Source: Celeribacter baekdonensis (GTDB lineage Bacteria; Pseudomonadota; Alphaproteobacteria; Rhodobacterales; Rhodobacteraceae). From it: a stretch of 64,000 bases of DNA. Position numbers and translations under genes: made by a program. The stretch is from contig NZ_FNBL01000002.1 in the NCBI RefSeq assembly GCF_900102315.1, forward strand, positions 1-64,000. The letters are read 5' to 3'. The notes beneath the pieces are model-generated. The model had not been told where the DNA came from, did no database searches, and worked only from the letters and a program-made list of their open reading frames with translations. Within the stretch, counting starts at the first letter, position 1. Every line of letters begins with the position of its first letter. Positions 50,002 through 64,000 of this stretch are shown here, in pieces.

Positions 50002-51858
50002 ATGAATCGCTTTACTTTTCTGGTCGCATCCGCCGGCCTTTGTGTGATTTCCGCGCCGGGTGTCGCGCAGGAGACATTCGTTTTGGATGAGATCATCGTC
50101 ACCGGCGGGTTGTCCCCGATCGCTGCCGAAAAATTTGGCCGCGCCGTCAGTGTCGTGACCGCAGAAGACATCAAAGAGCGCGGCATCACCACGGTGCAGG
50201 ATGCCCTGCGTGCTTTGCCCGGCGTATCGGTCAACGGCACTGGCACAAGTGACACCCAAGTCCGCATCCGCGGCGGCGAGGCCAACCACACGCTGGTCCT
50301 GATCGACGGCATCGCCGCCGCCGGGGGGAATGGGGAATATACGTTCAGCGGTCTGGAAACCGCCAATATCGAGCGCATAGAGGTGCTGCGCGGGCCGCAA
50401 TCGGTCTATTACGGCTCAAACGCCTCCGCCGGGGTGATCAACATCATCACCCGCAAAGGCACGGAGGGCACGACACTGAATGGCAGTCTTGAGGTTGGCT
50501 CCGGCACCACCGCGAGCACCTTTGTGGCACGGCGGGATGCGCAGGGCGGTGTGTCTTTGGCACTGTCGCACATGGATGATCCGGGCTTTGACCAATCGGG
50601 CGATGGTGGGGAAAAGGACGGGCTGACGCGCTCCACCGCGATCCTGTCGGGCGATTATCAGGCGACGGATGAATTGAAACTGGGGTTCACTCTACGCCGT
50701 TCTGAAGAACGTTACGAGTATGACAGTGCAAACTGGCTGGCGAGCGATGCGGACAGCTATATGATGGATGATCCAACGCAGTATGCCAATCGTGATGAGC
50801 TGACGGCTGGCGTCTTTGGTGAATATAGCATGAGGGAGGGGCGATTGACCCACCGTCTGGCTGTTGAAACGACGCAAAACAGGTTGAAAAACAATGGCGG
50901 AGCCACCACCAAAACCACCACAGATGCGGTAAAATACCGGCTCAGCTATGGCCTCGACGGCGCGGTGGATCAGGCGGATCAGCTTCTGAACCTATTGTTG
51001 GAACATCGTGAGGATGACAGCAGTTCCAACCCGACCTATGGCCGCGCGGCGACATCCGTGGCACTCGAATATCGCGGTAGCTTTGCCTCGGGGCTTGATG
51101 TTCAGGCCGGGGCGCGGTTTGACGACAACGACGTGTTCAAGGATGCGACAACATGGAATCTCGGCCTGTCCTATCTCATGGACAACGGTGTGCGGCTGCA
51201 TGGCTCTGCGGGCGAGGGCGTGGTGAACCCCACCTATTTCGAACTCTATGCCGATGCCTTTGGCTACACCGGGAACCCGGACCTGCAACCGGAGCGCAAT
51301 CTCAGCTATGATCTCGGTGTCGAGCTGCCGATTTTTGGCGACCGGGGGACAGTGGATGTGACCCTGTTTAAAGAGCGCCTGACGGATGAAATTACCTCTG
51401 TCAGCACCGATTCGGGGCGCACCTTTATCAACCAGACCGGGAACAGCGATCGACGCGGCGTTGAGATCGCAGGCGTGCTTGACGCCACCGATGCGCTGTC
51501 TCTGCGTCTTGGCTACACCTATCTTGAGGCCAAAAACCCCGACAAAACCGTCGAGATTCGCCGTCCGCGCCATGAGTTGACACTTGGCGGCACGCTGGAC
51601 GCCTTTGGTGGGCGTGGTTCGGTTTCGGCCGATCTGCGCCATGTTGCGGGCAATTACGACACGCAGTTCTGGGGGAGCTATCAAACGGTCAAACTGCCCA
51701 GCTCCACCACCGTCAATCTGGCGGCGCACTATGATCTGACAGATCGTGTGCAACTCACCGGGCGGGTCGAAAATCTCTTTGATGCGGATGCCACCGAGGT
51801 CTGGGGCTATGCCACGCGGGGTCGCGCCGTTTATGTCGGGCTCAATGCACAGTTCTAG
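50002..51858 (+). CDS. btuB: TonB-dependent receptor, BtuB-like
   Basis: 618 residues. A signal peptide (to about APGVAQ) precedes the plug domain with DEIIVTGGLSP as the TonB-box region, VTAEDIKERGITTVQDALRALPGV and RIEVLRGPQSVYYGS. A 22-strand beta-barrel is expected, ending in ...YVGLNAQF with the terminal Phe needed for outer-membrane assembly. Its riboswitch leader and operon mates identify cobalamin or cobamides as the ligand. The start at 50002 lies after the riboswitch; the reading frame is open far upstream but that part is riboswitch RNA. Confidence 0.92.
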   Translation: MNRFTFLVASAGLCVISAPGVAQETFVLDEIIVTGGLSPIAAEKFGRAVSVVTAEDIKERGITTVQDALRALPGVSVNGTGTSDTQVRIRGGEANHTLVLIDGIAAAGGNGEYTFSGLETANIERIEVLRGPQSVYYGSNASAGVINIITRKGTEGTTLNGSLEVGSGTTASTFVARRDAQGGVSLALSHMDDPGFDQSGDGGEKDGLTRSTAILSGDYQATDELKLGFTLRRSEERYEYDSANWLASDADSYMMDDPTQYANRDELTAGVFGEYSMREGRLTHRLAVETTQNRLKNNGGATTKTTTDAVKYRLSYGLDGAVDQADQLLNLLLEHREDDSSSNPTYGRAATSVALEYRGSFASGLDVQAGARFDDNDVFKDATTWNLGLSYLMDNGVRLHGSAGEGVVNPTYFELYADAFGYTGNPDLQPERNLSYDLGVELPIFGDRGTVDVTLFKERLTDEITSVSTDSGRTFINQTGNSDRRGVEIAGVLDATDALSLRLGYTYLEAKNPDKTVEIRRPRHELTLGGTLDAFGGRGSVSADLRHVAGNYDTQFWGSYQTVKLPSSTTVNLAAHYDLTDRVQLTGRVENLFDADATEVWGYATRGRAVYVGLNAQF

Positions 51859-52708
51859 GTCCGCCCTTGGTCTCGTTCTGTCGGGGGTGCTGGTGTGCAG
51901 TGCCCCCGTCCTTGCCCCCGTCATGGCGCGTGCAGAGATGCCCGCGCGCGTTGTCTCAATGAACCTGTGCACCGATCAGCTTGCGATGATGCTGGCGGCT
52001 CCGGGGCAATTGAGGTCGGTGTCGTTCTTGGCCTCCGATCCGCGCTCTTCCGCGATGGCGGAGGAGGCCGCATCCTATCCCGCCAATCGTGGGCAGGCCG
52101 AAGAGATTTACCTGATGCAGCCCGATCTGGTGGTCGCGGGGGCGTATACCTCCCGCGCCACCGTCGCCTTGTTGCAACGTCTGGGGGTCCAGGTCGAGAT
52201 TTTCGCGCCTGTCACCGCACTCGACGACGTGCCCGCACAGATCACGCGGATGGGCGATGTTTTGGGCCAACAGGACAAGGCCGCACAGATCATCGCGACC
52301 TATGAGGCGGATTTGAAAGCCTTTCAGCAGGAAAGCGGGCGCAGCCCCACTGCCGTGCTCTATGAGGCCAATGGCTACACCTCAGGGGCGCAAAGCCTGT
52401 CGGGGCAAATTTTGGCCACGGCAGGGTTCACCAATCTGGCCAATGAGGCCGCTTATGCCTGGGGCGCCAACATGCCGCTTGAGGTGTTGGTGATGAAAGC
52501 CCCCGAAGCGGTGATCACCAGCCGATCCTATCCGGGCGGCTCGCGCGCCGAGGATATCCTGAGCCATCCGGCCCTGCGCGCCACCCAAGACCGTCGCGCA
52601 GAAGGCAGCGTGTCCGATAGCGATTGGGTCTGTGGCACACCTTATGTTTTGCGTGCGGTCGCGCAGATGGTAAGCCTGCGCCATACGCTGACAAACGGAG
52701 AGGATTGA
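51845..52708 (+). CDS. btuF: Periplasmic cobalamin-binding protein, BtuF-like
   Basis: 287 residues. A signal peptide (to about ARAEMPARV) is followed by a helical-backbone type solute-binding domain with VVSMNLCTDQLAMML and AEEIYLMQPDLVVAG, typical of B12/iron-chelate binding proteins. It delivers the cobamide to the BtuC/BtuD transporter. The start overlaps the receptor gene by 14 bases; the in-frame open stretch upstream of 51845 is inside the receptor. Its stop overlaps the btuC start. Confidence 0.88.
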   Translation: MHSSRSALGLVLSGVLVCSAPVLAPVMARAEMPARVVSMNLCTDQLAMMLAAPGQLRSVSFLASDPRSSAMAEEAASYPANRGQAEEIYLMQPDLVVAGAYTSRATVALLQRLGVQVEIFAPVTALDDVPAQITRMGDVLGQQDKAAQIIATYEADLKAFQQESGRSPTAVLYEANGYTSGAQSLSGQILATAGFTNLANEAAYAWGANMPLEVLVMKAPEAVITSRSYPGGSRAEDILSHPALRATQDRRAEGSVSDSDWVCGTPYVLRAVAQMVSLRHTLTNGED

Positions 52709-53685
52709 TGCGCCTCTATGTGATCCTTTTGATCCTGATGGGGACGCTGTTTGGCGTGGCCTTGATGATCGGCCCGGCAGGCATTGCGCCGCTGGACAGT
52801 CTGCGCGCGCTGATCTTTGGCGGTGACGGCCCCATGACGCTGGTGATGCGCGAAATCCGCCTGCCGCGCGCGCTTTTGGCGCTGATGATCGGGGCGGCGC
52901 TTGGAATGTCGGGGGCGGCGATGCAGGGCTATCTGCGCAACCCTCTGGCCGATCCGGGGCTGATCGGCGTGTCAGGATCGGCGGCTTTGGGGGCGGTGAT
53001 CGCGATCCAAACCGGCATCGCGGCCACCACCACCTTGGCGCTGCCGGTTTCGGCATTGGTGGGCGCGTTGGTCGGCGTGGTCCTGGTGCTGATGCTGGCG
53101 GGGCCACGCGGCGGATCGCTGACGCTGATCCTTGCGGGCATTGCGATTTCGGCCCTCGCCGGGGCTTTGACCTCCTTGGTTTTGAACCTGTCGCCCAATC
53201 CTTTCGCGGCCAATGACATCGTGTTCTGGATGATGGGGTCGCTGGCCGATCGTTCGATGACCCATGTCTGGCTGGTACTGCCGCTGATCGTCGTGGGGCT
53301 GGGGATGTTGGCGCTGATGCGCCGGGGGCTTGATGCGCTCACATTGGGCGAAGATGCGGCGCAGGCGATGGGGATCAACCTTGCCCAATTGCGCCTGTTG
53401 TTGGTGCTTGGCACGGCCTGTGTGGTCGGGGCCTCCACCGCCGTGGCGGGCGCGATTGGGTTTATCGGCCTTGTGGTGCCGCACATGCTACGTGGCTGGG
53501 TCGGCGCTCGTCCGGGGCGGCTTCTTTGGGCCTCAGCCCTTGGTGGCGCGGTGATGCTCCTGGCGGCGGATATCGCTGTGCGGGTGATTTTGCCCATGCG
53601 CGATCTGAAACTTGGCGTGGTGACGGCACTGGTCGGCGCGCCGCTGTTTCTGCATTTGATCTATCGCACGCGGAGGGGGCTATGA
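52708..53685 (+). CDS. btuC: Cobalamin ABC permease, BtuC-like (FecCD family)
   Basis: 325 residues with about nine to ten hydrophobic helices. REIRLPRALLALMIGAALGMSGAAMQGYLRNPLADPGLIGVS (recognised in parts) and GFIGLVVPHMLRGWVGARPG are hallmarks of FecCD/BtuC permeases. It forms the inner-membrane channel. The start overlaps the btuF stop (TGATG) and its stop overlaps the btuD start, showing tight coupling. Confidence 0.92.
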   Translation: MRLYVILLILMGTLFGVALMIGPAGIAPLDSLRALIFGGDGPMTLVMREIRLPRALLALMIGAALGMSGAAMQGYLRNPLADPGLIGVSGSAALGAVIAIQTGIAATTTLALPVSALVGALVGVVLVLMLAGPRGGSLTLILAGIAISALAGALTSLVLNLSPNPFAANDIVFWMMGSLADRSMTHVWLVLPLIVVGLGMLALMRRGLDALTLGEDAAQAMGINLAQLRLLLVLGTACVVGASTAVAGAIGFIGLVVPHMLRGWVGARPGRLLWASALGGAVMLLAADIAVRVILPMRDLKLGVVTALVGAPLFLHLIYRTRRGL

Positions 53686-54440
53686 CGTTGCTTTCCGTCA
53701 AAGGACTTGCCGTTTCGCTTGGCGGCAGGTCGGTGTTGCAAGACGTCTCCCTGACTGTGGACAAGGGCGAGGTCGTTGGGTTGATCGGGCCGAATGGCGC
53801 GGGCAAGACCACGCTTATGCGCGCCATTTTGGGCCTTGTGCCGCATCAGGGCCGCTCGTCTTTGGCGCAACTGTCGCCGCGGGCGCGGGGGCGCGCCGCC
53901 GCGTGGATGCCGCAAACGCGCGAGATTGCTTGGCCGGTGTCGGTTGAAACGCTGGTGGCGCTGGGCCGCACGCCGCATCTGGCACCGGGGCAACGCGCCA
54001 GTGCCGAGGACCGCGCGGCGGTGGATCGGGCGCTTAAGCGGATGGGGTTGCAAGAGTTCCGCCACCGTATCGCCACCGCATTGTCGGGCGGCGAACAGGC
54101 CCGTGTGCTGATGGCGCGCGCTCTGGCGCAAGACGCGCCGCTTTTGATGGCGGACGAGCCGATTGCCGGGCTGGACCCGGCGCATCAAATCTCGACCATG
54201 CGCACGTTTGCATCGCTTGCCGCCGAAGGTCAGGCGGTGATCGTGTCCCTGCATGATCTGGGTCTTGGGGTGCGTCATTGCACGCGGCTGATTGTGTTGG
54301 ATCAGGGCCGCATCGTCGCCGATGGCGCGCCGACCTCGGTGCTGACGCCTGCGCTTTTGCGCGACACATTCGGCATCTCGGCTTGGTTTGAAACCACGCC
54401 TCAAGGTGCCGTTTTTCAGCCGCTGGAGGTGCTGGAATGA
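53682..54440 (+). CDS. btuD: Cobalamin ABC ATPase, BtuD-like
   Basis: 252 residues. Walker A is GPNGAGKTT, the signature is ALSGGEQARV and Walker B is LLMADEPIAGLD, as in FepC/BtuD-type ATPases. It energises the BtuC channel. It begins at an ATG that overlaps the btuC stop and ends overlapping the cbiZ start by four bases. Confidence 0.9.
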   Translation: MTLLSVKGLAVSLGGRSVLQDVSLTVDKGEVVGLIGPNGAGKTTLMRAILGLVPHQGRSSLAQLSPRARGRAAAWMPQTREIAWPVSVETLVALGRTPHLAPGQRASAEDRAAVDRALKRMGLQEFRHRIATALSGGEQARVLMARALAQDAPLLMADEPIAGLDPAHQISTMRTFASLAAEGQAVIVSLHDLGLGVRHCTRLIVLDQGRIVADGAPTSVLTPALLRDTFGISAWFETTPQGAVFQPLEVLE

Positions 54441-55126
54441 CTGTCGCCCTGAACCGGCCTTGGCTGTCTTTCGATCTTGGGCAGGACATGCAGGTGCTCA
54501 GTTGGGCGCTGAACCGTCCGGGGTTTGTCACCGCGCGGCGCATCCTGTGGCGCGAGGTGCGCAACGCCGATCTGAGCGAAACGCTGGATGCGCGCGCATG
54601 GCTTTGCGGTGAGTTGGCCGGGCTTGGCGCGCAAGACGCCGTGGCTTTTTTGACCTCGCGCGATGTGCGCCGTTTTCAAAAATCCGAGGTCGAGGTGGAC
54701 GGCATGTGCGCCACCTGTGTGGTCACGGTTGGCCTGTCCAATGCCGAACGTGTGGGGATGCGCGTGGTGCGGCCTCACGATGCCTGGGGCACGATCAACA
54801 TCGCGGTGCGGCTGAGCCATGGTTTGTCGCAGGCCGGGTTGATCGAGGCGCTCACGATCATTGCCGAGGCCCGCACCGCCGCCATTCTTGACGCCGCCTT
54901 GCCGCTTGAGAGCGCTGGCGGCACGGCCACCGGTTTGGCCACTGGCTTGGCCACCGGTTTGGCCACTGGCACGGGCACCGATTGTATCGCGGTCGCCGCA
55001 CCTGTCGGGACCGACGATTATGCTGGCCTGCACACGGCGGTGGGCGAAGCGATCGGGGCCGCCGTCTATCGCGCCACGCTTCAAGGCGCTCAGGACTGGC
55101 TGGTGGATCGCCAGCATGTCTCATAG
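54437..55126 (+). CDS. cbiZ: Adenosylcobinamide amidohydrolase CbiZ
   Basis: 229 residues. CbiZ hydrolyses adenosylcobinamide (and in Rhodobacter relatives pseudocobalamin) to adenosylcobyric acid, letting the cell rebuild the lower part of imported cobamides. Family features are WLSFDLGQDMQVLSWAL, FLTSRDVRRFQ, GMCATCVVTVGLSNAERV and GTINIAVRLSHGLSQ, and the conserved ATGTGTDCIAVAAPVG near residue 175. Directly before that motif there is an unusual GLAT-type tandem repeat. It is the last gene of the B12 uptake operon and gives it a salvage function. Confidence 0.9.
   Translation: MTVALNRPWLSFDLGQDMQVLSWALNRPGFVTARRILWREVRNADLSETLDARAWLCGELAGLGAQDAVAFLTSRDVRRFQKSEVEVDGMCATCVVTVGLSNAERVGMRVVRPHDAWGTINIAVRLSHGLSQAGLIEALTIIAEARTAAILDAALPLESAGGTATGLATGLATGLATGTGTDCIAVAAPVGTDDYAGLHTAVGEAIGAAVYRATLQGAQDWLVDRQHVS
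54925..54972. repeat. 12-bp tandem repeat, four units, inside cbiZ
   Basis: The unit GGCCACYGGYTT is repeated four times head to tail, the last unit ending CAC. It encodes ATGL repeats merging into the conserved ATGTGTD motif. Copy changes would keep the frame. Confidence 0.85.
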
Positions 55127-56538: not shown

Positions 56539-56557
56539 TGTAATGTTATTACATTTT
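56539..56557. promoter_or_regulatory. Zur-like operator 1
   Basis: TGTAAT-GTT-ATTACA is a perfect 6-bp inverted repeat. The 18 bases GTAATGTTATTACATTTT agree at 15 positions with the Zur-type palindrome GTAATGTTATAACATTAC as I remember it. It lies about 220 bases upstream of the flavoprotein gene. Zur binding is inferred from the match and from the zinc-related genes downstream. Confidence 0.5.
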
Positions 56558-56608
56558 GTATAATCAGAGTGTGCGTTATAAAGTAACATGGAATCAACGA
56601 TGCCCGGA

Positions 56609-56650
56609 CCCACAGTCTCGCCCACCGTCTTGCCCACAGTCTCGCCCACA
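56609..56650. repeat. 12-bp tandem repeat, about 3.5 units
   Basis: CCCACAGTCTCG, CCCACCGTCTTG, CCCACAGTCTCG and a partial CCCACA follow head to tail. It lies between the two Zur-like sites, so copy changes would alter their spacing. Confidence 0.8.
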
Positions 56651-56685
56651 TGCCGCGCTGATCTGTCTTTTCAGGGCAATCTAAT

Positions 56686-56703
56686 GTGATGTGATTACAT
56701 ATT
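56686..56703. promoter_or_regulatory. Zur-like operator 2 (weaker)
   Basis: GTGATGTGATTACATATT matches the Zur-type palindrome GTAATGTTATAACATTAC at about 12 of 18 positions. It lies about 70 bases upstream of the flavoprotein start, a normal place for a repressor site. Confidence 0.4.
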
Positions 56704-56772
56704 TGCACCTCCCACCACCCCAAAAGCACCGCGCCCTGTCAAAGCAGCGGCGCGCATGACGAAAGGTATCAA

Positions 56773-57690
56773 ATGCAAGATGCAGTTATCATTGGCGGCA
56801 GCTTCGCGGGATTGACCGCAGCGCTTCAACTTGGGCGCGCCAGCCGATCCGTCACAGTGATCGACGCCGGGGCACCGCGCAACCAAAGCTCATCCGCCGC
56901 GCATGGTGTGGCGGGGTGGGACGGTCTCTCGCCCAGTGCAATCCTTGAACGGTTCCGAGCCGACCTGAGGGCCTATCCGAGCGTCACGCAGCGCAGCGGC
57001 ACGGTGACGGCAATCCATGGCGGAGATGGCGCGTTTTCGGTGACGCTTGCGGATGGCGAAAAAAGTGCCGCAAAACGCATCATTCTGGCCCATGGCGTGC
57101 GCGATATTTTACCGGACATCCCCGGTCTCGCACAGGCATGGGGGCAGACCGTGCTGCACTGTCCCTATTGCCACGGCTACGAGGTCAAGGGCGCAGCGCT
57201 GGCCGTTCTCGCCACACATCCGATGAGCGCACATCAGGCCTTGATGTTGCGGGCCGATTGGAGTGCGCAGGTCACCCTGATCACCGGTGGCATGGCGGGG
57301 CTTGACCTCGACGCACTGGCCACGGCAGGGGTTCAGATCGAGACCAGAACGCTGGAGGCCGCAACCGCCGATGACACGGGCATCGACCTCAGCCTGAGCG
57401 GTGGCAGGGCCGCGCGCTTTGCGGCGCTGTTTGTCGGCCCCCGGACAAGCTTGGCGGCCAGCCCGGCAGAACAGCTCGGCTGCGCCTTGGCCGACGGGCC
57501 GATGGGGCCGTTCGTCAAGGTTGGCGCAATGGCCCAGACCAGCGTGCCGGGCGTGTTTGCCGCAGGCGATCTTGCCCGTCCGATGCCCAATATCAACTTC
57601 GCCCTTGCGGATGGCGCGCAGGCGGGCACGGGCTGCCATGCCTCGCTGCTGTTTCCCGGTCTTGTCACACCCCTGGAGGTCACCCCATGA
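56773..57690 (+). CDS. Thioredoxin-reductase-like FAD/NAD(P) oxidoreductase
   Basis: 305 residues. FAD motif [20 protein letters not shown] at the N-terminus, redox-active CPYCHGYE at about residue 130 and the closing FAD motif [28 protein letters not shown]. This is the thioredoxin-reductase class, but the CPYCHGYE centre (rather than CATC) places it in the AhpF/TrxB-like side branch seen next to transcription or metal genes. The natural disulfide partner is unknown. It is the first gene after the Zur-like sites and overlaps the COG0523 GTPase gene by four bases, so it may keep zinc-binding thiols reduced; that is inference. Confidence 0.87.
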
Positions 57691-58898
57691 CCGATACCCG
57701 CCTTCCTGTCACTGTTTTGTCCGGCTTTCTGGGCGCAGGGAAGACCACGCTTTTGAACCGCGTGCTGAACAACCGCGAGGGGCGGCGTGTGGCGGTGATC
57801 GTCAACGACATGTCAGAGATCAACATCGACGCCGATCTGGTGCGCGAGGGTGGGGCGAACCTCAGCCATACGGATGAAACATTGGTCGAGATGTCGAACG
57901 GCTGTATCTGCTGCACCCTGCGTGACGATCTTTTGCAAGAGGTGCGGCGGTTGGCCGAGGATGGTCGGTTTGATTATCTATTGATCGAGTCGACCGGGAT
58001 TTCCGAACCTCTGCCCGTGGCCGCGACGTTTGATTTTCGCGATGAGGCGGGCCAGAGCCTGTCGGATGTGTCGCGCCTCGACACGATGGTGACCGTGGTC
58101 GATGCGGTGAACCTGTTGCGGGATTATTCCAGCCATGATTTCCTGCGCGACCGGGGCGAGACGTTGGGCGACGAAGACGAGCGCACACTGGTCAATCTTT
58201 TGGTCGAACAGATCGAATTTGCCGATGTGGTGATCCTCAACAAGGTCGGTGACGCCGAACCGCATCAGGTGATCGCGGCGCGCAAGATCATCCGTAGCCT
58301 GAACGCCGATGCGCGGATCATCGAGACCAGTCACAGCGTGGTGCCCACGGAGGCGATCCTCGACACCGGGCTGTTCGATTTTGACAAAGCGCATGAGCAT
58401 CCGATGTGGGCCAAGGAGCTTTACGGCTTTGCCGATCATGTGCCCGAGACCGAAGAATACGGCGTCACCAGCCATGTCTACCGCGCCCGCCGTCCGTTTG
58501 AACCGGAGAAAATCATGGCCGTGTTGAATGGTGAAATGAGTGGTGTCATCCGCGCCAAGGGGCATTTCTGGATCGCGACACAGCCCGATTGGGTGGCGGA
58601 ATTTTCGCTTGCGGGGGCTCTGTCTTCGGTCAAGCCGCTGGGCACATGGTGGGCCGCAGTGCCAAAGGACCGCTGGCCGAATCATGAGGGTGCGCGCGAC
58701 TATATGGCCGCGCATTGGGCCGAGCCCTGGGGCGACCGCAGGCAGGAGATCGTCTTTATCGGCTCGGGGATCGACTGGCCCGCGCTCAAGGCGCGTCTGG
58801 ACGCCTGCCTTGTGCCTGAACATCTGGCCTCCGGTCCCGATGCACTGCCCGATTTGCCCGATCCCTTTCCCGTTTGGCGACGCGAGGCGGTGGCATGA
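57687..58898 (+). CDS. COG0523 (CobW/ZigA-type) GTPase, putative zinc metallochaperone
   Basis: 403 residues of the G3E GTPase family: Walker [16 protein letters not shown], the metal-binding CxCC in [21 protein letters not shown] and NKVGD for guanine. The C-terminal CobW domain follows. Family members insert or allocate cobalt (CobW), nickel or zinc (ZigA, YciC, ZNG1). Here the cobalamin genes are nearby but the next genes are zinc-type, and there are Zur-like sites upstream, so zinc allocation is favoured over CobW. It is coupled to the flavoprotein gene upstream. Confidence 0.88.
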
Positions 58899-58938
58899 GC
58901 TGTCTTCGCCATTGGCCAGAGGCCCCGGAGGCGGCGCG

Positions 58939-59241
58939 ATGAGGGCGACGAACCGGGGCCGCACGGGCCTCAAACCCAAACGGCGCAGCGAAGACCCGAT
59001 GCGCGCCTATGACACTTTACCCGCCCCCGTGCGTGCGTGGTTGTCAGAGGCCGCATTGCCTTGGTCGCCCGCATCCTGTCGCAAAATCCTGCGGCGGGCG
59101 CAGGCGCGCGGCGAAGGGTTTGCACAGATATTGGCGCGCCTTGATCACGCCGAACAAAAGACCCTCGCCCGCGACAGCGCCTTTCCCTTTGCGCCCCCCA
59201 AGGCCACCGCCCGCGTCACAGATCAGGACAGCACCACATGA
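58939..59241 (+). CDS. DUF6525 family protein
   Basis: 100 residues, with GGAGG seven bases before the ATG. RRSEDPMRAYDTLPAPVRAWL and AALPWSPASCRKILRRA are the DUF6525 signature known from Rhodobacterales. The protein is basic and soluble. Function is unknown. It stands between the COG0523 GTPase and the ZrgA-like gene, in the same direction, which suggests a role connected with that locus. The reading frame is open upstream into the GTPase gene, but the ribosome site fits only this start. Confidence 0.8.
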   Translation: MRATNRGRTGLKPKRRSEDPMRAYDTLPAPVRAWLSEAALPWSPASCRKILRRAQARGEGFAQILARLDHAEQKTLARDSAFPFAPPKATARVTDQDSTT

Positions 59242-59377
59242 CACGCTTCAGCGTCAGACAGCGCCCGTCAGTGTTGCGCGTTTTGGTGCGCAAACCCAAC
59301 TCTGCCCAAACGCCGCATCGCGTCTGTGTTGCAGTGACCCTCAAACTTTGACTTATATGACACCGAAAGGATTTCTT

Positions 59378-60007
59378 ATGAAACCGATCCGCTTTGCCCT
59401 TCTGGCCTCCCTCACCGCCGCGCCGCTTTTGGCGCAAGAGACCCGCGAGATGGACGCCCATGTCCATGGCCTCAGCACGCTTGAGCTTGCCATCGAGGGC
59501 GAGATCATCGAGATAAACCTTATGTCGCCCGGCATGGATATTGTCGGTTTCGAATACGCCGCCAGCACAGATGCGGATAAGGACAAAGTGGAGGCGGCGA
59601 TCCGCACGATGTTGCTGCCTGAAAACGTTATTGCGCTGCCAAAGGCTGCGGGGTGCCGGTTGACCGAAGTGCTGGCCCATCTTCACGCGGGTGGGCGCGA
59701 TCACGACGACGATGACGATCACGACGAAGGTCACGACAAAGATCACGACGAGGCGACCGATGAACATATGGATGAACATATGCATGACGAGGGCGAGGAT
59801 CACGATCATGCAGAGGCGGCCGCACATAGCGAATTTCACGCGCGCTACATCTTTGCCTGTGTTCAGCCCGAAGACCTCGGCACCATTGGCTTCCCCTTCT
59901 TTGAGCGCTTTGAAAACGCGCAGAAGATCGAGGCGCATTATGTCACCGCAACCGGCGCAGGCGCGGTTGAGATCAACCGCTCGGTTGCTGAACTGACGTT
60001 AGAGTGA
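59378..60007 (+). CDS. His/Asp-rich periplasmic zinc-binding protein, ZrgA/DUF2796 family
   Basis: 209 residues. A signal peptide (to about LLAQET) is followed by REMDAHVHGLSTLELAIEG and IVGFEYAASTDADKDKV, typical of DUF2796 (ZrgA). A central segment (about residues 105-150) is extremely rich in His, Asp and Glu and surely binds divalent metal. The C-terminal HARYIFACVQPEDL and FPFFERFENAQKIEAHYVT match the family. In Vibrio cholerae ZrgA is the zinc-binding protein of a Zur-controlled uptake system. The start at 59378 has AAAGGA upstream. The ABC and permease genes follow directly. Confidence 0.88.
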   Translation: MKPIRFALLASLTAAPLLAQETREMDAHVHGLSTLELAIEGEIIEINLMSPGMDIVGFEYAASTDADKDKVEAAIRTMLLPENVIALPKAAGCRLTEVLAHLHAGGRDHDDDDDHDEGHDKDHDEATDEHMDEHMHDEGEDHDHAEAAAHSEFHARYIFACVQPEDLGTIGFPFFERFENAQKIEAHYVTATGAGAVEINRSVAELTLE

Positions 60008-60009
60008 CC

Positions 60010-60705
60010 ATGATCCCACCCGCCCTTGCTCTTGATGATGTTGCCTTTGCCTGGCCGGGCCGGGGCGGGTTTTCCCTGTCCTGTCCGTCCTTTCAGATCG
60101 CGCCCGGTGAACGGGTGCTGCTGCTTGGGACCAGCGGATCGGGGAAATCCACGCTTTTGTCTCTGGTCTGCGGCGTCGTCCCCGCCACGCGGGGCCGGGT
60201 CTTGGTCGGCGGCACCGATCTTGGGGCGATGAGCGCGGGCGGGCGCGACCGGTTCCGGGCCGAACAGATCGGCGTGATCTTTCAACAGTTCAATTTGCTG
60301 CCCTATGCGAAGGTCATCGACAATATCCTTTTGCCGCTGCGCTTTGCACCGCATCGGCGGGCCCGCGCCGGGGGGGCAATCCATGAGGCCGCGCGGCTTT
60401 GCGCCGGACTTGGCCTGCCGGAGGAGGTTTTGAGCATGCCGTCGGGGCGGCTGAGTGTGGGTCAGCAACAACGCGTCGCGGTGGCGCGCGCCCTGATCGG
60501 TGCGCCGCCTTTGATCGTCGCGGACGAACCCACCTCGGCGCTCGATGCCGCAACTCAGGATCATTTTCTGCGCCTGTTGTTTGATCGCACAGATGAGGCG
60601 CAGTCGGCGCTGTTGATGGTCAGCCATGACGAAAGGCTCGCCCCAAGGTTCGACCGCGTGATCCGTCTTGCGGACATCGTGAGTACCGAAAGGAGCGCAG
60701 CATGA
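60010..60705 (+). CDS. ABC transporter ATPase, MacB/LolD type
   Basis: 231 residues. Walker A GTSGSGKST and Walker B LIVADEPTSALD are normal; the signature reads LSVGQQQR, with Val in place of the first Gly. IFQQFNLLPYAKVIDNILLPL is typical of the LolD/MacB group that works with FtsX-like permeases. An upstream GTG (60004) overlaps the ZrgA stop and is an alternative start. It overlaps the permease gene downstream. Confidence 0.88.
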   Translation: MIPPALALDDVAFAWPGRGGFSLSCPSFQIAPGERVLLLGTSGSGKSTLLSLVCGVVPATRGRVLVGGTDLGAMSAGGRDRFRAEQIGVIFQQFNLLPYAKVIDNILLPLRFAPHRRARAGGAIHEAARLCAGLGLPEEVLSMPSGRLSVGQQQRVAVARALIGAPPLIVADEPTSALDAATQDHFLRLLFDRTDEAQSALLMVSHDERLAPRFDRVIRLADIVSTERSAA

Positions 60706-61949
60706 TCTTGCGTCTGGCCATCGGGTCATTATGTGCGCGCGCCCTCACCGTTGGCATGACGATTTTGGCCATCGCGCTTTCGGTCGCGCTTTTCCTGGGT
60801 GTGGAAAAAATCCGCACCGGCGCGCGCGCCAGTTTTGCTGACACGATTTCGGGCACGGACCTGATTGTCGGGGCGCGTTCCGGGTCGGTGCAGCTTTTGC
60901 TCTATTCTGTTTTTCGAATAGGCAACGCCACCAACAACGTGACATGGGAAAGCTATCAAGACATCAAATCCCGCCCCGAGGTGGATTGGATCGTGCCGAT
61001 CTCACTGGGTGACAGCCATCGCCAGTTTCGCGTCATGGGGACGACATCGGGGTTTTTTGAACATTACAAATATCGCGGCGGGCGGGCGTTGGAGATCCCC
61101 GTGGGGCACGGGCTTGAGGACCTCTATGATGCGGTCATCGGTGCCGATGTGGCCGCCAGTTTGGGCTACGCCGTGGGTGATCCGATCGTGGTGTCGCATG
61201 GGCTTGCCTCCTTCACCGCCCATGACGATCAGCCGTTTCGGGTTGCGGGCATCATCGCCAAGACCGGGACGCCCGTGGACCGGACGGTGATCGTCAGCCT
61301 TGAGGCGATTGAGGCCATTCATGTCGATTGGCAAACTGGTGCAAAGTCCGGCCAGATCACGCCGCGCGAGGTCATTCGCGACATGGACCTGACGCCCACC
61401 GCGATCACGGCGGCACTGGTCGGGGTGAATTCGCGGTTGCAGGTTTTTGGCCTGCAACGCTGGATCAACGACTATCCCGAGGAGCCCGTGTTGGCCATTC
61501 TGCCGGGAGTGGCGCTTCAGGAGCTTTGGCAGATCGTCGGAGTGGCCGAAACCGCGTTGATCGGCGTGTCCGCGATGGTGGTGGTGACGGCGCTGATCGG
61601 CATGATGGCGATGATTTTTTCAAGCCTCAATGAGCGCAGGCGGGAGATGGCGATCTGGCGCGCAATGGGCGCGCGGCCCAGCACCATTTTGGGCCTGCTG
61701 GTGCTTGAGGCGATGCTGATGGCGGCGGCGGGGGCTTTGCTTGGCCTCGGTTTTTTGTACCTCGGTCTCGTGATTGGACAGCCTTGGGTGGACGCCGCCT
61801 TTGGGATTTGGTTGCCGATTGATCCGCCTTCGCTGCGCGACGTCTTGGCGCTTGGTTTCGTGATCGGCGCGGCGGCGCTCACCAGCCTTTTTCCGGCGCT
61901 GAGGGCCTATCGCTTGTCGCTCGCCGATGGCATGATGGTGCGGATATGA
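60702..61949 (+). CDS. FtsX-like ABC permease, MacB/LolC type
   Basis: 415 residues. One N-terminal helix (about residues 10-28), a large periplasmic domain, then three C-terminal helices, the FtsX/MacB layout. SSLNERRREMAIWRAMGARPSTILGLLVLEAML near the third quarter (recognised in parts) and RAYRLSLADGM at the end match the family. Such permeases usually move lipids or drugs or pass mechanical force rather than import solutes in the classic way. Placement with ZrgA-like and DUF3299 genes points to a zinc role as in ZrgABCDE, mechanism unknown. Confidence 0.88.
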   Translation: MILRLAIGSLCARALTVGMTILAIALSVALFLGVEKIRTGARASFADTISGTDLIVGARSGSVQLLLYSVFRIGNATNNVTWESYQDIKSRPEVDWIVPISLGDSHRQFRVMGTTSGFFEHYKYRGGRALEIPVGHGLEDLYDAVIGADVAASLGYAVGDPIVVSHGLASFTAHDDQPFRVAGIIAKTGTPVDRTVIVSLEAIEAIHVDWQTGAKSGQITPREVIRDMDLTPTAITAALVGVNSRLQVFGLQRWINDYPEEPVLAILPGVALQELWQIVGVAETALIGVSAMVVVTALIGMMAMIFSSLNERRREMAIWRAMGARPSTILGLLVLEAMLMAAAGALLGLGFLYLGLVIGQPWVDAAFGIWLPIDPPSLRDVLALGFVIGAAALTSLFPALRAYRLSLADGMMVRI

Positions 61950-62461
61950 AACAACAGATTCACCTCTCACGCAGACAGTTCGGCTGTCTTGCCCTCGCAA
62001 CCACTGCCCTGCCGCGCGTGGCTCTCGCCATGCCGTTTCAGGAACTCACCTGGGAGGAGCTGATCCCGCCCGGCGTGCCCTATTCCGAGATCATCGGCGA
62101 AGGCGCTCTTGATGAGGAAAACGACACGTGGAACCCGATCTTTGATGAGAACGCGACCAAGTTGAACACGGCACTGGATGGCGCGTCGGTCAAATTGCCC
62201 GGCTACATCATTCCGATGCAGATCGAAGCCGAGGGCGTGAGCGCATTTATCCTGGTGCCCTATACCGGGGCCTGCATTCATGTGCCGCCGCCACCGCCAA
62301 ATCAGTTGGTCTATGTGACCACACAAACGCCTTGGCCATCAAACAAGCTGTGGGATGCGATATGGGTCTATGGCCGCCTGAAAGCGCGGTTGCAATCGAC
62401 GGAGATCGCCGAGATTGGCTATGAGATCGTGGCGAGCAAGATCGAGATCTACGACTGGTAG
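61946..62461 (+). CDS. DUF3299 family secreted protein
   Basis: 171 residues beginning with a Tat-like signal (LSRRQFGCLALATTALPRV). The mature part shows ELTWEELIPPGVPYSEIIG, VKLPGYIIPMQIEAEGVSAFILVPYTGACIHVPPPPPNQLVYV (in parts) and IWVYGRLKARLQSTEIAEIGYEI, which match DUF3299. Members occur with ZrgA-type ABC loci; a metal-binding or lipoprotein role is assumed. The Cys and His in GACIHVPPPPPN could bind metal. It overlaps the permease gene by four bases and ends the forward operon. Confidence 0.86.
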   Translation: MKQQIHLSRRQFGCLALATTALPRVALAMPFQELTWEELIPPGVPYSEIIGEGALDEENDTWNPIFDENATKLNTALDGASVKLPGYIIPMQIEAEGVSAFILVPYTGACIHVPPPPPNQLVYVTTQTPWPSNKLWDAIWVYGRLKARLQSTEIAEIGYEIVASKIEIYDW

Positions 62462-62497
62462 CGGCCTGCCTCGCGTGACAGATCAAAAGGGTGCGCG

Positions 62498-63280
62498 TCA
62501 GCCTTTGCTCTCAAACCGAACGACAAGTTTGATCGGCTTTCCCGTCGGTGTCGGGGCAAACGGGCCGGCGCGTTGCACCTGTACAAGGGCAACTTTGTCG
62601 ATCTCGGCATGACCCGAACTTTGCACAATCGCCACGTTTGAAATCGCGCCCGAGGCGGTGATGGTCAGTCCGACCATCGCCTTGCCCCGCGCGCCCGCAG
62701 AGCGTTTTGGCACCCGCGCGATCTTGCGCAAAATCTGGCTTTGATAGGACCGAACGGCCCCGTCTCCGGCGTCCGCTGCCGCGGGTTTGGCGGTTTTTTG
62801 CGATCCCTGTGCGTTTGTGCCACCCGGCGTCGCCGCCAACGCGCCTTTTTTTGCGTTTGTTTCGGCATTGCCGGATTTCGACGGCGGTTGTGTTGTCGGT
62901 TTTGGGGGTTTCTTGACCTCTGGCGGCGCGAGTTTTGGCGGCGGTGTGTGTGCCACAATGCGCTCCTGTGGTGCCTTGGCCGTCACGCGCGGGCTGTCGG
63001 GCACAAGCGCCTTGGGTGGGACGGGGGCTTCGGTCGGGGTGCGCATATCTAGGGGCGGGACCTCAGGCGTTTGAGCCGTGGAAACAGGCGGTGTTTCCAT
63101 CGGGACCACCGGGTGCACGGAGCCTGCAACCAAGTCTTCGAACCCCAATCCGAGCGCCACCTCACCCGCCACCACACCCCCGTCCAAGACGGGTGCTGGG
63201 GCGGCGGGCATCCATCCGGCGGCAAAGACATGCGCCCCGGCTGAGACACAGAGCGCACCCAGGAACCAAGCGTTTCTCAT
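62498..63280 (-). CDS. tonB: Energy transducer TonB
   Basis: 260 residues. An N-terminal signal-anchor is followed by a long proline-, lysine- and threonine-rich periplasmic linker (about residues 60-160) and the TonB C-terminal domain with SYQSQILRKIARVPK, GKAMVGLTITASGAISNVAIVQSSGHAEID and the end VVRFES. TonB links the proton motive force to outer-membrane receptors. It is coupled to exbD upstream (four-base overlap). It can serve the BtuB-like receptor 11 kb away. The zinc-type operon converges with it. Confidence 0.9.
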   Translation of the reverse strand: MRNAWFLGALCVSAGAHVFAAGWMPAAPAPVLDGGVVAGEVALGLGFEDLVAGSVHPVVPMETPPVSTAQTPEVPPLDMRTPTEAPVPPKALVPDSPRVTAKAPQERIVAHTPPPKLAPPEVKKPPKPTTQPPSKSGNAETNAKKGALAATPGGTNAQGSQKTAKPAAADAGDGAVRSYQSQILRKIARVPKRSAGARGKAMVGLTITASGAISNVAIVQSSGHAEIDKVALVQVQRAGPFAPTPTGKPIKLVVRFESKG

Positions 63281-63678
63281 GGCAAGGCCCTTTCTGTCAT
63301 CACCCGGACATGCGTACCGCTCCCCGCGATGGCGATCTCGCGCGCCAATGCCACCAACGTCTGCGCGGGCACGCGGGCGTCGGGTAAAATGCGCAAGGCG
63401 TCAGCGGGCGCGGATGTGTCGGCGGTGGTTGTCGTCACAAAAGCCTCGACCGTCGTCACATCCCCGCGCCACATCAATGTGCCGTCTTGCATCAGCACCA
63501 AGGCATCGGGCGGGGGCACCACATCGGGATCATCGGTGCGCACCAATGTGACCTCTGAGGGCAGGGGGCGGGCGACCTGCGCGGCCACAAGGAAAAAGAT
63601 CAGCATCAAAAACACGACATTGATCAGCGGCAATGTCGGCTCTGTGCGGGAGGTGCGGCGGGTGGAAAGGCGACGCAT
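63277..63678 (-). CDS. exbD: ExbD-family biopolymer transport protein
   Basis: 133 residues. The single N-terminal helix has the ExbD pattern with the proton-carrying Asp region around TLPLINVVFLMLIFFLVAAQ, and the periplasmic part ends with a short beta domain. Compared with ExbD consensus (xPLIDV), the expected Asp is Asn in PLINV, so proton transfer by this copy is uncertain. A second ExbD-like gene lies immediately upstream. Confidence 0.82.
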   Translation of the reverse strand: MRRLSTRRTSRTEPTLPLINVVFLMLIFFLVAAQVARPLPSEVTLVRTDDPDVVPPPDALVLMQDGTLMWRGDVTTVEAFVTTTTADTSAPADALRILPDARVPAQTLVALAREIAIAGSGTHVRVMTERALP

Positions 63679-63681
63679 GGT

Positions 63682-64000
63682 TCACTCCAGAACGGCAAAT
63701 CTTGTGTTGGGCAAGGCGCTCAACACTTGGACCACTTCGACAAACCCCTGGGCATTGGCGTCTTTTGACACCGACAACAACAGGCGGGCGTGGCCGTCGC
63801 GGCGAAACGGGTCCACGGCGGCAGCGACATCGGCCAGTGCCGATCTGTGGCCATTGATCAAGACACCGTCAGCATCAAGTCGGGCAAAGACCACCGGGGT
63901 GTCGTCAAAATCGGGGGACGCCGCGCCACCGGAGACCGTCAATTCCACCTCGCCAAATTTTGAAAATGTCGAAGACAGCATGAAGAACAACAGCAAGAGA
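63682..64000 (-). CDS. Second ExbD-like protein, 5' end outside the window
   Basis: About 105 residues are visible. They begin in the transmembrane helix (LLLFFMLSSTF) and continue with VELTVSGG and a periplasmic domain ending NTRFAVLE, as in ExbD. The start and the helix Asp lie beyond the right edge. It is followed three bases later by the ATG of the next exbD. ExbB is probably also outside the window. Confidence 0.8.
   Translation of the reverse strand, partial: LLLLFFMLSSTFSKFGEVELTVSGGAASPDFDDTPVVFARLDADGVLINGHRSALADVAAAVDPFRRDGHARLLLSVSKDANAQGFVEVVQVLSALPNTRFAVLE

What the first reader, a model, noticed from the sequence alone, without database searches (positions are those of the whole stretch)
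56539..64000. Composite zinc-type locus: flavoprotein, COG0523 GTPase, DUF6525, ZrgA-like, MacB-like ABC, DUF3299, with TonB and two ExbD
Seven forward genes, most with overlapping or closely spaced reading frames, combine parts known from zinc homeostasis (COG0523 GTPase, His-rich ZrgA/DUF2796) with parts not usually called zinc importers (LolD/MacB-type ATPase, FtsX-type permease, Tat-exported DUF3299, a thioredoxin-reductase-like enzyme). TonB and two ExbD genes converge on them. The V. cholerae ZrgA-E system is the nearest described relative. How an FtsX-like permease and TonB would jointly handle zinc is not described to my knowledge.
Basis: partly seen in the sequence, partly recalled or inferred. 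Interest (0 to 1): 0.75.

Follow-up and report, generated by a model that had tools for sequence, protein, structure and literature searches.

The report
Zinc-starvation operon with dithiol-oxidase-like flavoprotein
A marine Celeribacter-like bacterium carries a zinc-starvation operon of mostly known parts; the TonB genes next to it belong to haem uptake instead, and the unexpected part is an enzyme related to those that disarm zinc-grabbing antibiotics, found in its closest relatives beside zinc-response genes.

Summary
The seven forward genes are real and largely overlapping. Their promoter holds Zur-type sites of the published Paracoccus form; the same pattern, with one mismatch, lies between znuA and a Fur-family gene, so the operon is very probably Zur-controlled. 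The last four genes are a ZrgA-C-B-E system known from Vibrio and Pseudomonas, so the MacB/FtsX-type permease is not new here. TonB and the two ExbD genes are the tail of a haem-uptake operon and only converge on the zinc operon. The extra parts are not chance neighbours: COG0523 lies within 5 kb of DUF6525 at 39 of 65 places, and DUF6525 genes away from COG0523 have Zur-like sites upstream in 12 of 20 loci read. The flavoprotein is the most informative part. It is related to the dithiol oxidases DepH, HlmI and GliT, and all 14 loci read from its clade and sister clade have zinc-response genes nearby, against 0 of 67 more distant relatives. Pseudomonas DnoP, a DepH-group enzyme, is induced by zinc starvation and disarms zinc-chelating dithiols; I propose the same job here under Zur (inferred). 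New variant of a known kind.

The parts
56540..56557 (.). Zur-like site 1, GTAATGTTATTACATTTT
   Evidence: 16.4 bits at 56543 and 16.3 at 56540, the best in the window, with a matrix from published P. denitrificans Zur sites; rare in the genome; 15/18 to a recalled Zur consensus (the 16/18 there is to a string written after seeing the site)
56575..56589 (.). possible weaker Zur-like site, GTTATAAAGTAACAT
   Evidence: 13.6 bits with the same matrix; under the threshold of 14 used
56686..56703 (.). Zur-like site 2, GTGATGTGATTACATATT
   Evidence: matches my pattern exactly but only 11.1 bits with the P. denitrificans matrix, below an unrelated place in the window (11.5 at 288)
56773..57690 (+). 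FAD flavoprotein with [10 protein letters not shown] motif, DepH/GliT/HlmI-like; candidate Zur-controlled dithiol oxidase
   Evidence: Pfam; PDB sequence matches 3fbs 1.6e-72, DepH 2.4e-65, 4ntd 4.2e-45, GliT 8.7e-32; tree; neighbourhood
57687..58898 (+). COG0523 (cobW/G3E) GTPase with GCICC motif
   Evidence: Pfam; sequence; relatives at E<=1e-60 in 61 of 198 family genomes
58939..59241 (+). DUF6525, small helical protein with basic N-terminus
   Evidence: Pfam; 66 of 198 genomes; model pLDDT 83.6 with four helices; no PDB fold match at E<=0.001
59378..60007 (+). ZrgA (DUF2796), exported His/Asp-rich protein of a zinc-binding family
   Evidence: PF10986; PDB matches 8ezw and 7ahw/PA4063
60004..60705 (+). 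ABC ATPase (ZrgC type)
   Evidence: Pfam
60702..61949 (+). MacB/LolE-type permease (ZrgB type), long N-terminal helix, large middle domain, three long C-terminal helices
   Evidence: Pfam; Foldseek best MacB 5nik 6.2e-13, LolCDE chain 9rlc_E 1.5e-12, from a middling model, pLDDT 71
61946..62461 (+). DUF3299 (ZrgE type) with twin-arginine-like signal SRRQFG
   Evidence: Pfam; PDB match 4hsp 6.7e-29; signal motif recognised by eye
62498..63280 (-). TonB: last gene of the haem operon, not part of the zinc operon
63277..63678 (-). ExbD (haem operon)
63682..64000 (-). second ExbD (haem operon, continues beyond the window)

Best explanation
A Zur-repressed zinc-starvation operon made of three modules. 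Shown by computation: Zur-type promoter sites; a ZrgA-C-B-E set; a COG0523 of the zinc context with DUF6525; a DepH-like flavoprotein whose clade was found only beside zinc-response genes among the loci read. Inferred: when zinc is short, Zur releases the promoter. ZrgA binds metal in the periplasm and the MacB-type ZrgBC with the exported DUF3299 protein handles it at the inner membrane. The COG0523 GTPase hands scarce zinc to client proteins, with DUF6525 as a small accessory. The flavoprotein acts in the cytosol as a dithiol oxidase: it closes vicinal thiols of zinc-chelating molecules (such as dithiolopyrrolones) into disulfides, so that they release zinc and stop starving the cell. TonB/ExbD take no direct part; they power haem uptake next door. 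The confidence is for the Zur operon and module reading; for the enzyme's substrate class alone I would say about 0.4.
For: Zur: a one-mismatch site lies between znuA and a Fur-family gene (intergenic sequence); the published P. denitrificans Zur sites have the same form, and its operon pden1338-1344, led by a COG0523 gene, is induced more than 8-fold without zinc (passages of PMC5387054). A matrix from five of those published sites puts its best hits in the window in this promoter. Sites >=14 bits occur upstream of zrgA in 18 of 34 loci (1.8 kb), COG0523 in 14 of 21 (1.3 kb), DUF6525 away from COG0523 in 12 of 20 (1.3 kb), against 0.85 per 100 kb in unrelated loci and 1.84 per 100 kb in local shuffles. 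Core: ZrgA over cut-off in 35 of 198 family genomes; ATPase, permease and DUF3299 beside it in 31 of 36 loci. Flavoprotein: zinc-response genes within 8.5 kb in 10 of 10 clade loci and 4 of 4 sister loci, 0 of 67 others (still 0 of 67 at E<=1e-5); COG0523 next downstream in 13 of 14; Zur-like sites >=13 bits upstream, up to 3.6 kb, in 11 of 14. DnoP, a DepH-group dithiol oxidase, is induced by zinc starvation and acts on gliotoxin and holomycin (passages of PMC11317636).
Against: No expression, zinc or enzyme data exist here for this organism. Site 2 scores only 11.1 bits. Matrix threshold and upstream distances were my choice; 16 of 34 zrgA loci have no site within 1.8 kb (the window is one of them, its sites lie before the flavoprotein), and 3 of 14 flavoprotein loci have none. 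Three other one-mismatch genome sites (C15, C22, C37) were not followed up. Zrg lies within 5 kb of COG0523 at only 4 of 36 places, the window included, so the full combination is uncommon. Four of the 14 flavoprotein loci (L124, L126, L128, L129) have COG0523, DUF1826 or DUF6525 but no zinc transporter that I recognised. The active-site motif is widely shared outside zinc loci ([10 protein letters not shown] in 54 of 66 tree rows). The direction of Zrg transport is disputed in print.
Confidence: 0.72

Rival explanations
1. The flavoprotein is a thiol reductase or redox keeper for its neighbour: it sets the redox state of the CxCC zinc site of COG0523 (or of COG0523 clients), so that zinc can be loaded when little is available.
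For: COG0523 is next downstream of the flavoprotein in 13 of 14 loci, with two different kinds of COG0523 (about 665-900 bits in the clade, about 145 bits in three sister loci); GCICC is present in the window protein.
Against: The best characterised relatives are oxidases of small dithiols, not protein reductases (passages of PMC11317636). By eye the NADPH-binding glycine motif of thioredoxin reductases is absent. L170 has the flavoprotein beside an AztC/ZnuA-type gene without COG0523 in reach.
Confidence: 0.3
2. The Zrg part is a MacB-type exporter, moving a metallophore or excess substitute metal (such as cobalt) outward during zinc starvation, not an importer.
For: Permease fold nearest MacB and LolCDE; the P. 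aeruginosa homologue PA4063-4066 is argued to export pyochelin-cobalt (abstract and passages of PMC11481552).
Against: Vibrio cholerae zrgA is needed for normal growth at low zinc in a strain without znuA, taken as import (abstract and passages of PMC9820375). I did not look for a metallophore synthase in this genome.
Confidence: 0.35
3. One reading: TonB, ExbD and the FtsX-like permease work together on zinc.
For: Convergent neighbours here and in Celeribacter baekdonensis (L122); in one other genome (G013) a haem operon with ExbB also lies within 11 kb of a zrg operon, and in a third (G086) within 20 kb.
Against: The TonB genes are the tail of a haem operon; HmuS is near ExbB at 37 of 59 places, zrg near ExbB at 2 of 36.
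Confidence: 0.05
4. Chance neighbours: unrelated genes that happen to lie together in this strain.
For: The full seven-gene set is uncommon: among 36 zrg places, 4 have COG0523 within 5 kb.
Against: Shared Zur-type sites, 4-bp overlaps, the same order in C. baekdonensis (L122) and, with extra genes, in Pseudooceanicola batsensis (L127), and the counts for COG0523-DUF6525 (39 of 65) and flavoprotein-zinc (14 of 14 against 0 of 67).
Confidence: 0.03

Closest known systems
ZrgABCDE of Vibrio cholerae / V. parahaemolyticus; PA4063-PA4066 of Pseudomonas aeruginosa
   Same: ZrgA, separate ATPase, MacB-like permease and DUF3299 protein; zinc/Zur control
   Different: here preceded by flavoprotein, COG0523 and DUF6525 in one operon; ZrgD (DUF2607) was not looked for
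pden1338-1344 of Paracoccus denitrificans (COG0523, two hypothetical proteins, cluster C ABC transporter)
   Same: Zur-bound promoter of the same sequence type; COG0523 first. The two hypothetical proteins are probably DUF1826 and DUF6525, judged from gene order in relatives (inference)
   Different: no flavoprotein and no Zrg in the operon as described; another transporter; no DUF1826 between COG0523 and DUF6525 in the window
AztABCD and ZnuABC zinc import operons
   Same: some related flavoproteins sit inside or beside such operons (L155, L151, L069, L170, L123, L130; the labels Azt and Znu are mine)
   Different: the transporter there is of another ABC type
DnoP (PA4170), DepH, HlmI, GliT dithiol oxidases
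   Same: sequence family, CxxC motif, and for DnoP induction by zinc starvation
   Different: here encoded in a zinc operon under a Zur-type promoter; I had no DnoP sequence to compare; activity not tested
HmuSTUV-TonB-ExbBD haem uptake
   Same: the neighbouring minus-strand operon has its parts
   Different: not part of the zinc operon

Membership tests
ZrgABC(D)E zinc system | ZrgA/DUF2796 protein | tested here: met
   PF10986 165 bits, cut-off 27.4
ZrgABC(D)E zinc system | separate ATPase and MacB/FtsX-type permease next to it | tested here: met
ZrgABC(D)E zinc system | DUF3299 protein (ZrgE) | tested here: met
   PF11736 129 bits; PDB 4hsp, which I take to be PA4066 (recalled)
ZrgABC(D)E zinc system | ZrgD (DUF2607) | not tested
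   not searched; no such family among the ten proteins
ZrgABC(D)E zinc system | zinc-starvation growth role | not testable with these tools
   needs mutants
Zur regulon | Zur box in the promoter, of the same type as at znuA/zur | tested here: met
   (sequence only; no binding data)
zinc-type COG0523 | cobW domain and CxCC motif | tested here: met
   GCICC
zinc-type COG0523 | placement in the published COG0523 subfamily 1 | not tested
   no tree of COG0523 was made
DepH/DnoP-group dithiol oxidase | FAD pyridine-nucleotide-disulphide family with HCxxC motif | tested here: met
DepH/DnoP-group dithiol oxidase | groups with DepH in a tree | tested here: inconclusive
   66-row tree: DepH pairs with 3fbs outside the zinc clade; 4ntd and GliT are long branches at an open fork with it
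DepH/DnoP-group dithiol oxidase | oxidises vicinal dithiols | not testable with these tools
   needs enzyme
TonB/ExbD as part of the zinc system | co-conserved with zrg | tested here: not met
   2 of 36 zrg places near ExbB; 37 of 59 HmuS places near ExbB

The most novel reading that the evidence does not exclude
Rhodobacterales built a dedicated dithiol oxidase into their Zur regulon, beside two unrelated kinds of zinc transporter (Zrg and the Azt/Znu type) and always with zinc-response genes, as a standing antidote to zinc-chelating dithiol antibiotics: loss of zinc itself switches on the enzyme that shuts the chelator and frees the zinc. DUF6525 would be a further, so far unnamed, member of the alphaproteobacterial Zur regulon.
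Probability: 0.38. Interest if true: 0.72.

Novelty: new variant of a known kind. Interest (0 to 1): 0.55.

Why it matters
If the flavoprotein is a Zur-controlled dithiol oxidase, zinc homeostasis and defence against chelating antibiotics are wired together in marine bacteria. That would give a second lineage for the zinc-induced defence reported for Pseudomonas DnoP, whose signalling route was left open in the passages I read. It also gives DUF6525, for which a full-text search of the held open-access library found no paper, a regulon and a testable context.

Tried and rejected
TonB/ExbD as zinc partners: rejected after reading beyond the window. Chance neighbourhood: rejected for flavoprotein, COG0523 and DUF6525.

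A first upstream scan used backgrounds that contained real sites and open-frame starts instead of gene starts; its percentiles are not used, only its site scores. One search replaced it. DUF6525 fold search gave nothing (best E 3.9). The permease model is of middling confidence (pLDDT 71, pTM 0.54), so only its class is used. Tree rooting and the joining of 4ntd with GliT are not relied on; the zinc clade has support 87/90, below the tool's star.

Rows dropped or limited: of 30 DUF6525 places away from COG0523 (more than 5 kb), 20 were read; of 65 COG0523 places, 20 were fetched, picked by hand for spread. The zinc clade was first picked by its neighbours and then found to be one group in the tree. 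L124 and L068 are the same locus (G128). ZrgA: 36 places over cut-off in 35 genomes; two (L066, L067) gave no phmmer match to the window's ZrgA and were left out of the 34; L040 and L048 end with their contigs, and L050 has ZrgA without the other parts. Eight weaker flavoprotein matches (43-47% identity) were not read for neighbours. The labels AztB, AztC, AztD and Zur are mine; Pfam was run on some, and the AztD-like protein has no Pfam family.
Full report
What is there. The reported genes are confirmed: flavoprotein 56773-57690, COG0523 57687-58898, DUF6525 58939-59241, ZrgA 59378-60007, ATPase 60004-60705, MacB/FtsX-type permease 60702-61949 and DUF3299 61946-62461, with gaps of -4, +40, +136, -4, -4 and -4 bp. 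The nearest named relative in the flavoprotein search is Celeribacter baekdonensis B30, whose flavoprotein is 93% identical and whose gene order is the same.

The TonB side. Reading past 64000 shows TonB, ExbD, ExbD, ExbB, a 137-aa protein without a Pfam family, an ABC ATPase, a FecCD permease, a periplasmic binding protein and HemS on the minus strand, with an 815-aa receptor-like frame behind them (judged by sequence). This is a haem-uptake operon. In 198 family genomes an HmuS relative has an ExbB relative within 8 kb at 37 of 59 places, whereas zrgA has one within 11 kb at 2 of 36. The convergent neighbourhood is therefore no sign of a shared zinc mechanism. Against my reading: a zrg-hmu neighbourhood also occurs in G013 (within 11 kb) and G086 (within 20 kb).

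Control by zinc. The pattern GTRATGTNATNACAT, written from the promoter, has no other exact match in 4.44 Mb. Of four one-mismatch matches, the one at C17:182599 lies between znuA (C17:181566-182498) and a Fur-family gene (C17:182776-183129); the other three were not followed up. Published P. denitrificans Zur sites such as GTAATGTAATAACAT have the same form, with gel-shift tests, and the operon led by its COG0523 gene is strongly induced without zinc (passages of PMC5387054). A matrix made only from five of those published sites gives 16.4 bits in this promoter, its best in the window, but only 11.1 bits for the second site. It finds sites of 14 bits or more upstream of zrgA in 18 of 34 loci, of COG0523 in 14 of 21 and of DUF6525 away from COG0523 in 12 of 20 (eleven of these 65-128 bp before the aligned anchor), against 0.85 per 100 kb in unrelated loci and 1.84 per 100 kb in shuffles. 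Threshold and distances were my choice. A gene that by its sequence is of the Fur family stands directly upstream of zrgA in 7 of the zrg loci read (Pfam not run on these).

The Zrg core. ZrgA exceeds the Pfam cut-off in 35 of 198 family genomes. ATPase, permease and DUF3299 accompany it in 31 of the 36 loci read; of the five others, two end with their contig. ZrgA matches the solved V. cholerae and P. aeruginosa proteins, DUF3299 matches 4hsp, and the permease model is nearest MacB and LolCDE. The system is published, as a zinc importer in Vibrio (abstract and passages of PMC9820375; passages of PMC9817125) and as a MacB-type exporter of pyochelin-cobalt in Pseudomonas (abstract and passages of PMC11481552). 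The sequence does not settle the direction.

The cytosolic module. COG0523 relatives (E<=1e-60) occur in 61 and DUF6525 in 66 of 198 genomes; 49 genomes have both (Fisher p about 1e-20, not corrected for kinship), and 39 of 65 COG0523 places have DUF6525 within 5 kb. In several relatives DUF1826 stands between them (Pfam checked on one); in the window the gap is 40 bp. A published figure legend already lists DUF1826 in Zur-regulated COG0523 clusters (passage of PMC2770081). Zrg lies within 5 kb of COG0523 at 4 of 36 places. DUF6525 is predicted as a small four-helix protein with a basic tail and no known fold match; a full-text search found no paper that names it.

The flavoprotein. Only 3 of 198 family genomes have a relative of 52% identity or more. 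Its best solved relatives are 3fbs, DepH, 4ntd (recalled as HlmI) and GliT. In a tree of 66 rows the window protein and the ten nearest named relatives form one group (support 87/90), with four Rhodobacter-type proteins as sister. All 10 fetched clade loci and all 4 sister loci have zinc-response genes within 8.5 kb, and none of the 67 other relatives has (the same at a laxer threshold). By locus: directly followed by COG0523, DUF6525 and Zrg in L122 and L127; Zrg within 8 kb on the same strand in L125 and L131; an Azt-like operon with Fur-family gene in L123; zur- and znuA-like genes upstream in L130; only COG0523 with DUF1826 or DUF6525 in L124, L126, L128 and L129; behind an AztC/ZnuA-type binding protein in the four sister loci. 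COG0523 is the next gene downstream in 13 of 14. Zur-like sites of 13 bits or more lie upstream, up to 3.6 kb, in 11 of 14; L126, L128 and L129 have none.

What it probably does. P. aeruginosa DnoP, placed in the DepH group by its authors, is induced by zinc starvation and re-forms the disulfide of gliotoxin and holomycin; reduced gliotoxin chelates zinc (passages of PMC11317636). A DepH-like enzyme inside Zur-type zinc operons would do the same job with a direct switch. This is inference: no activity is known to me for this clade. The main rival is a redox partner of the CxCC site of COG0523, which the tight gene pairing also fits.

Novelty. The core is known; the full combination and the zinc-linked flavoprotein clade were not found in my searches (open-access full texts only, listings seen). 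I file it as a new variant of a known kind.

Noticed in passing
L003 3084-6856 (G000:C12 about 72084-75856): A second minus-strand ExbD-ExbD-ExbB-like set with a receptor-like 731-aa frame lies just behind the haem receptor: two TonB-type clusters in tandem (names from sequence; one ExbB match there).
   Followed up: partly
L002 14664-15077 (window coordinates 64663-65076): 137-aa exported-looking protein between the haem ATPase and ExbB, no Pfam family; a relative in the same setting in G013 (L038).
   Followed up: partly
L038 (G013): This genome has two zrg copies; one lies directly behind hmuSTUV with ExbB/ExbD divergent, a second zrg-haem neighbourhood with another gene order.
   Followed up: partly
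51746-55126: Upstream operon of BtuF/BtuC/BtuD-like genes with a CbiZ-like last gene: probably corrinoid uptake (names from sequence recognition, not from a family search).
   Followed up: no
L041, L044, L045, L051, L064: Exported-looking protein of about 340 aa behind the zrg permease in 5 loci; the L044 copy has no Pfam family.
   Followed up: partly
zrg loci L002, L033-L067: 13 of 36 loci have two or more open frames matching DUF3299; the window has one.
   Followed up: no
L123 12826-14271, L076 8645-9838: A zinc-binding alcohol dehydrogenase sits between DUF1826 and DUF6525 inside zinc operons (Pfam for L123; L076 judged by its start).
   Followed up: partly
L070, L074, L075, L125, L129, L131: A gene that looks like a peptide-type ABC binding protein follows DUF6525 (by sequence), as in the published pden1338-1344.
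   Followed up: partly
DUF6525 sequences, alignment A2: Two kinds of DUF6525: one ends soon after the last helix, the other has a C-terminal VWGxxHP motif.
   Followed up: no
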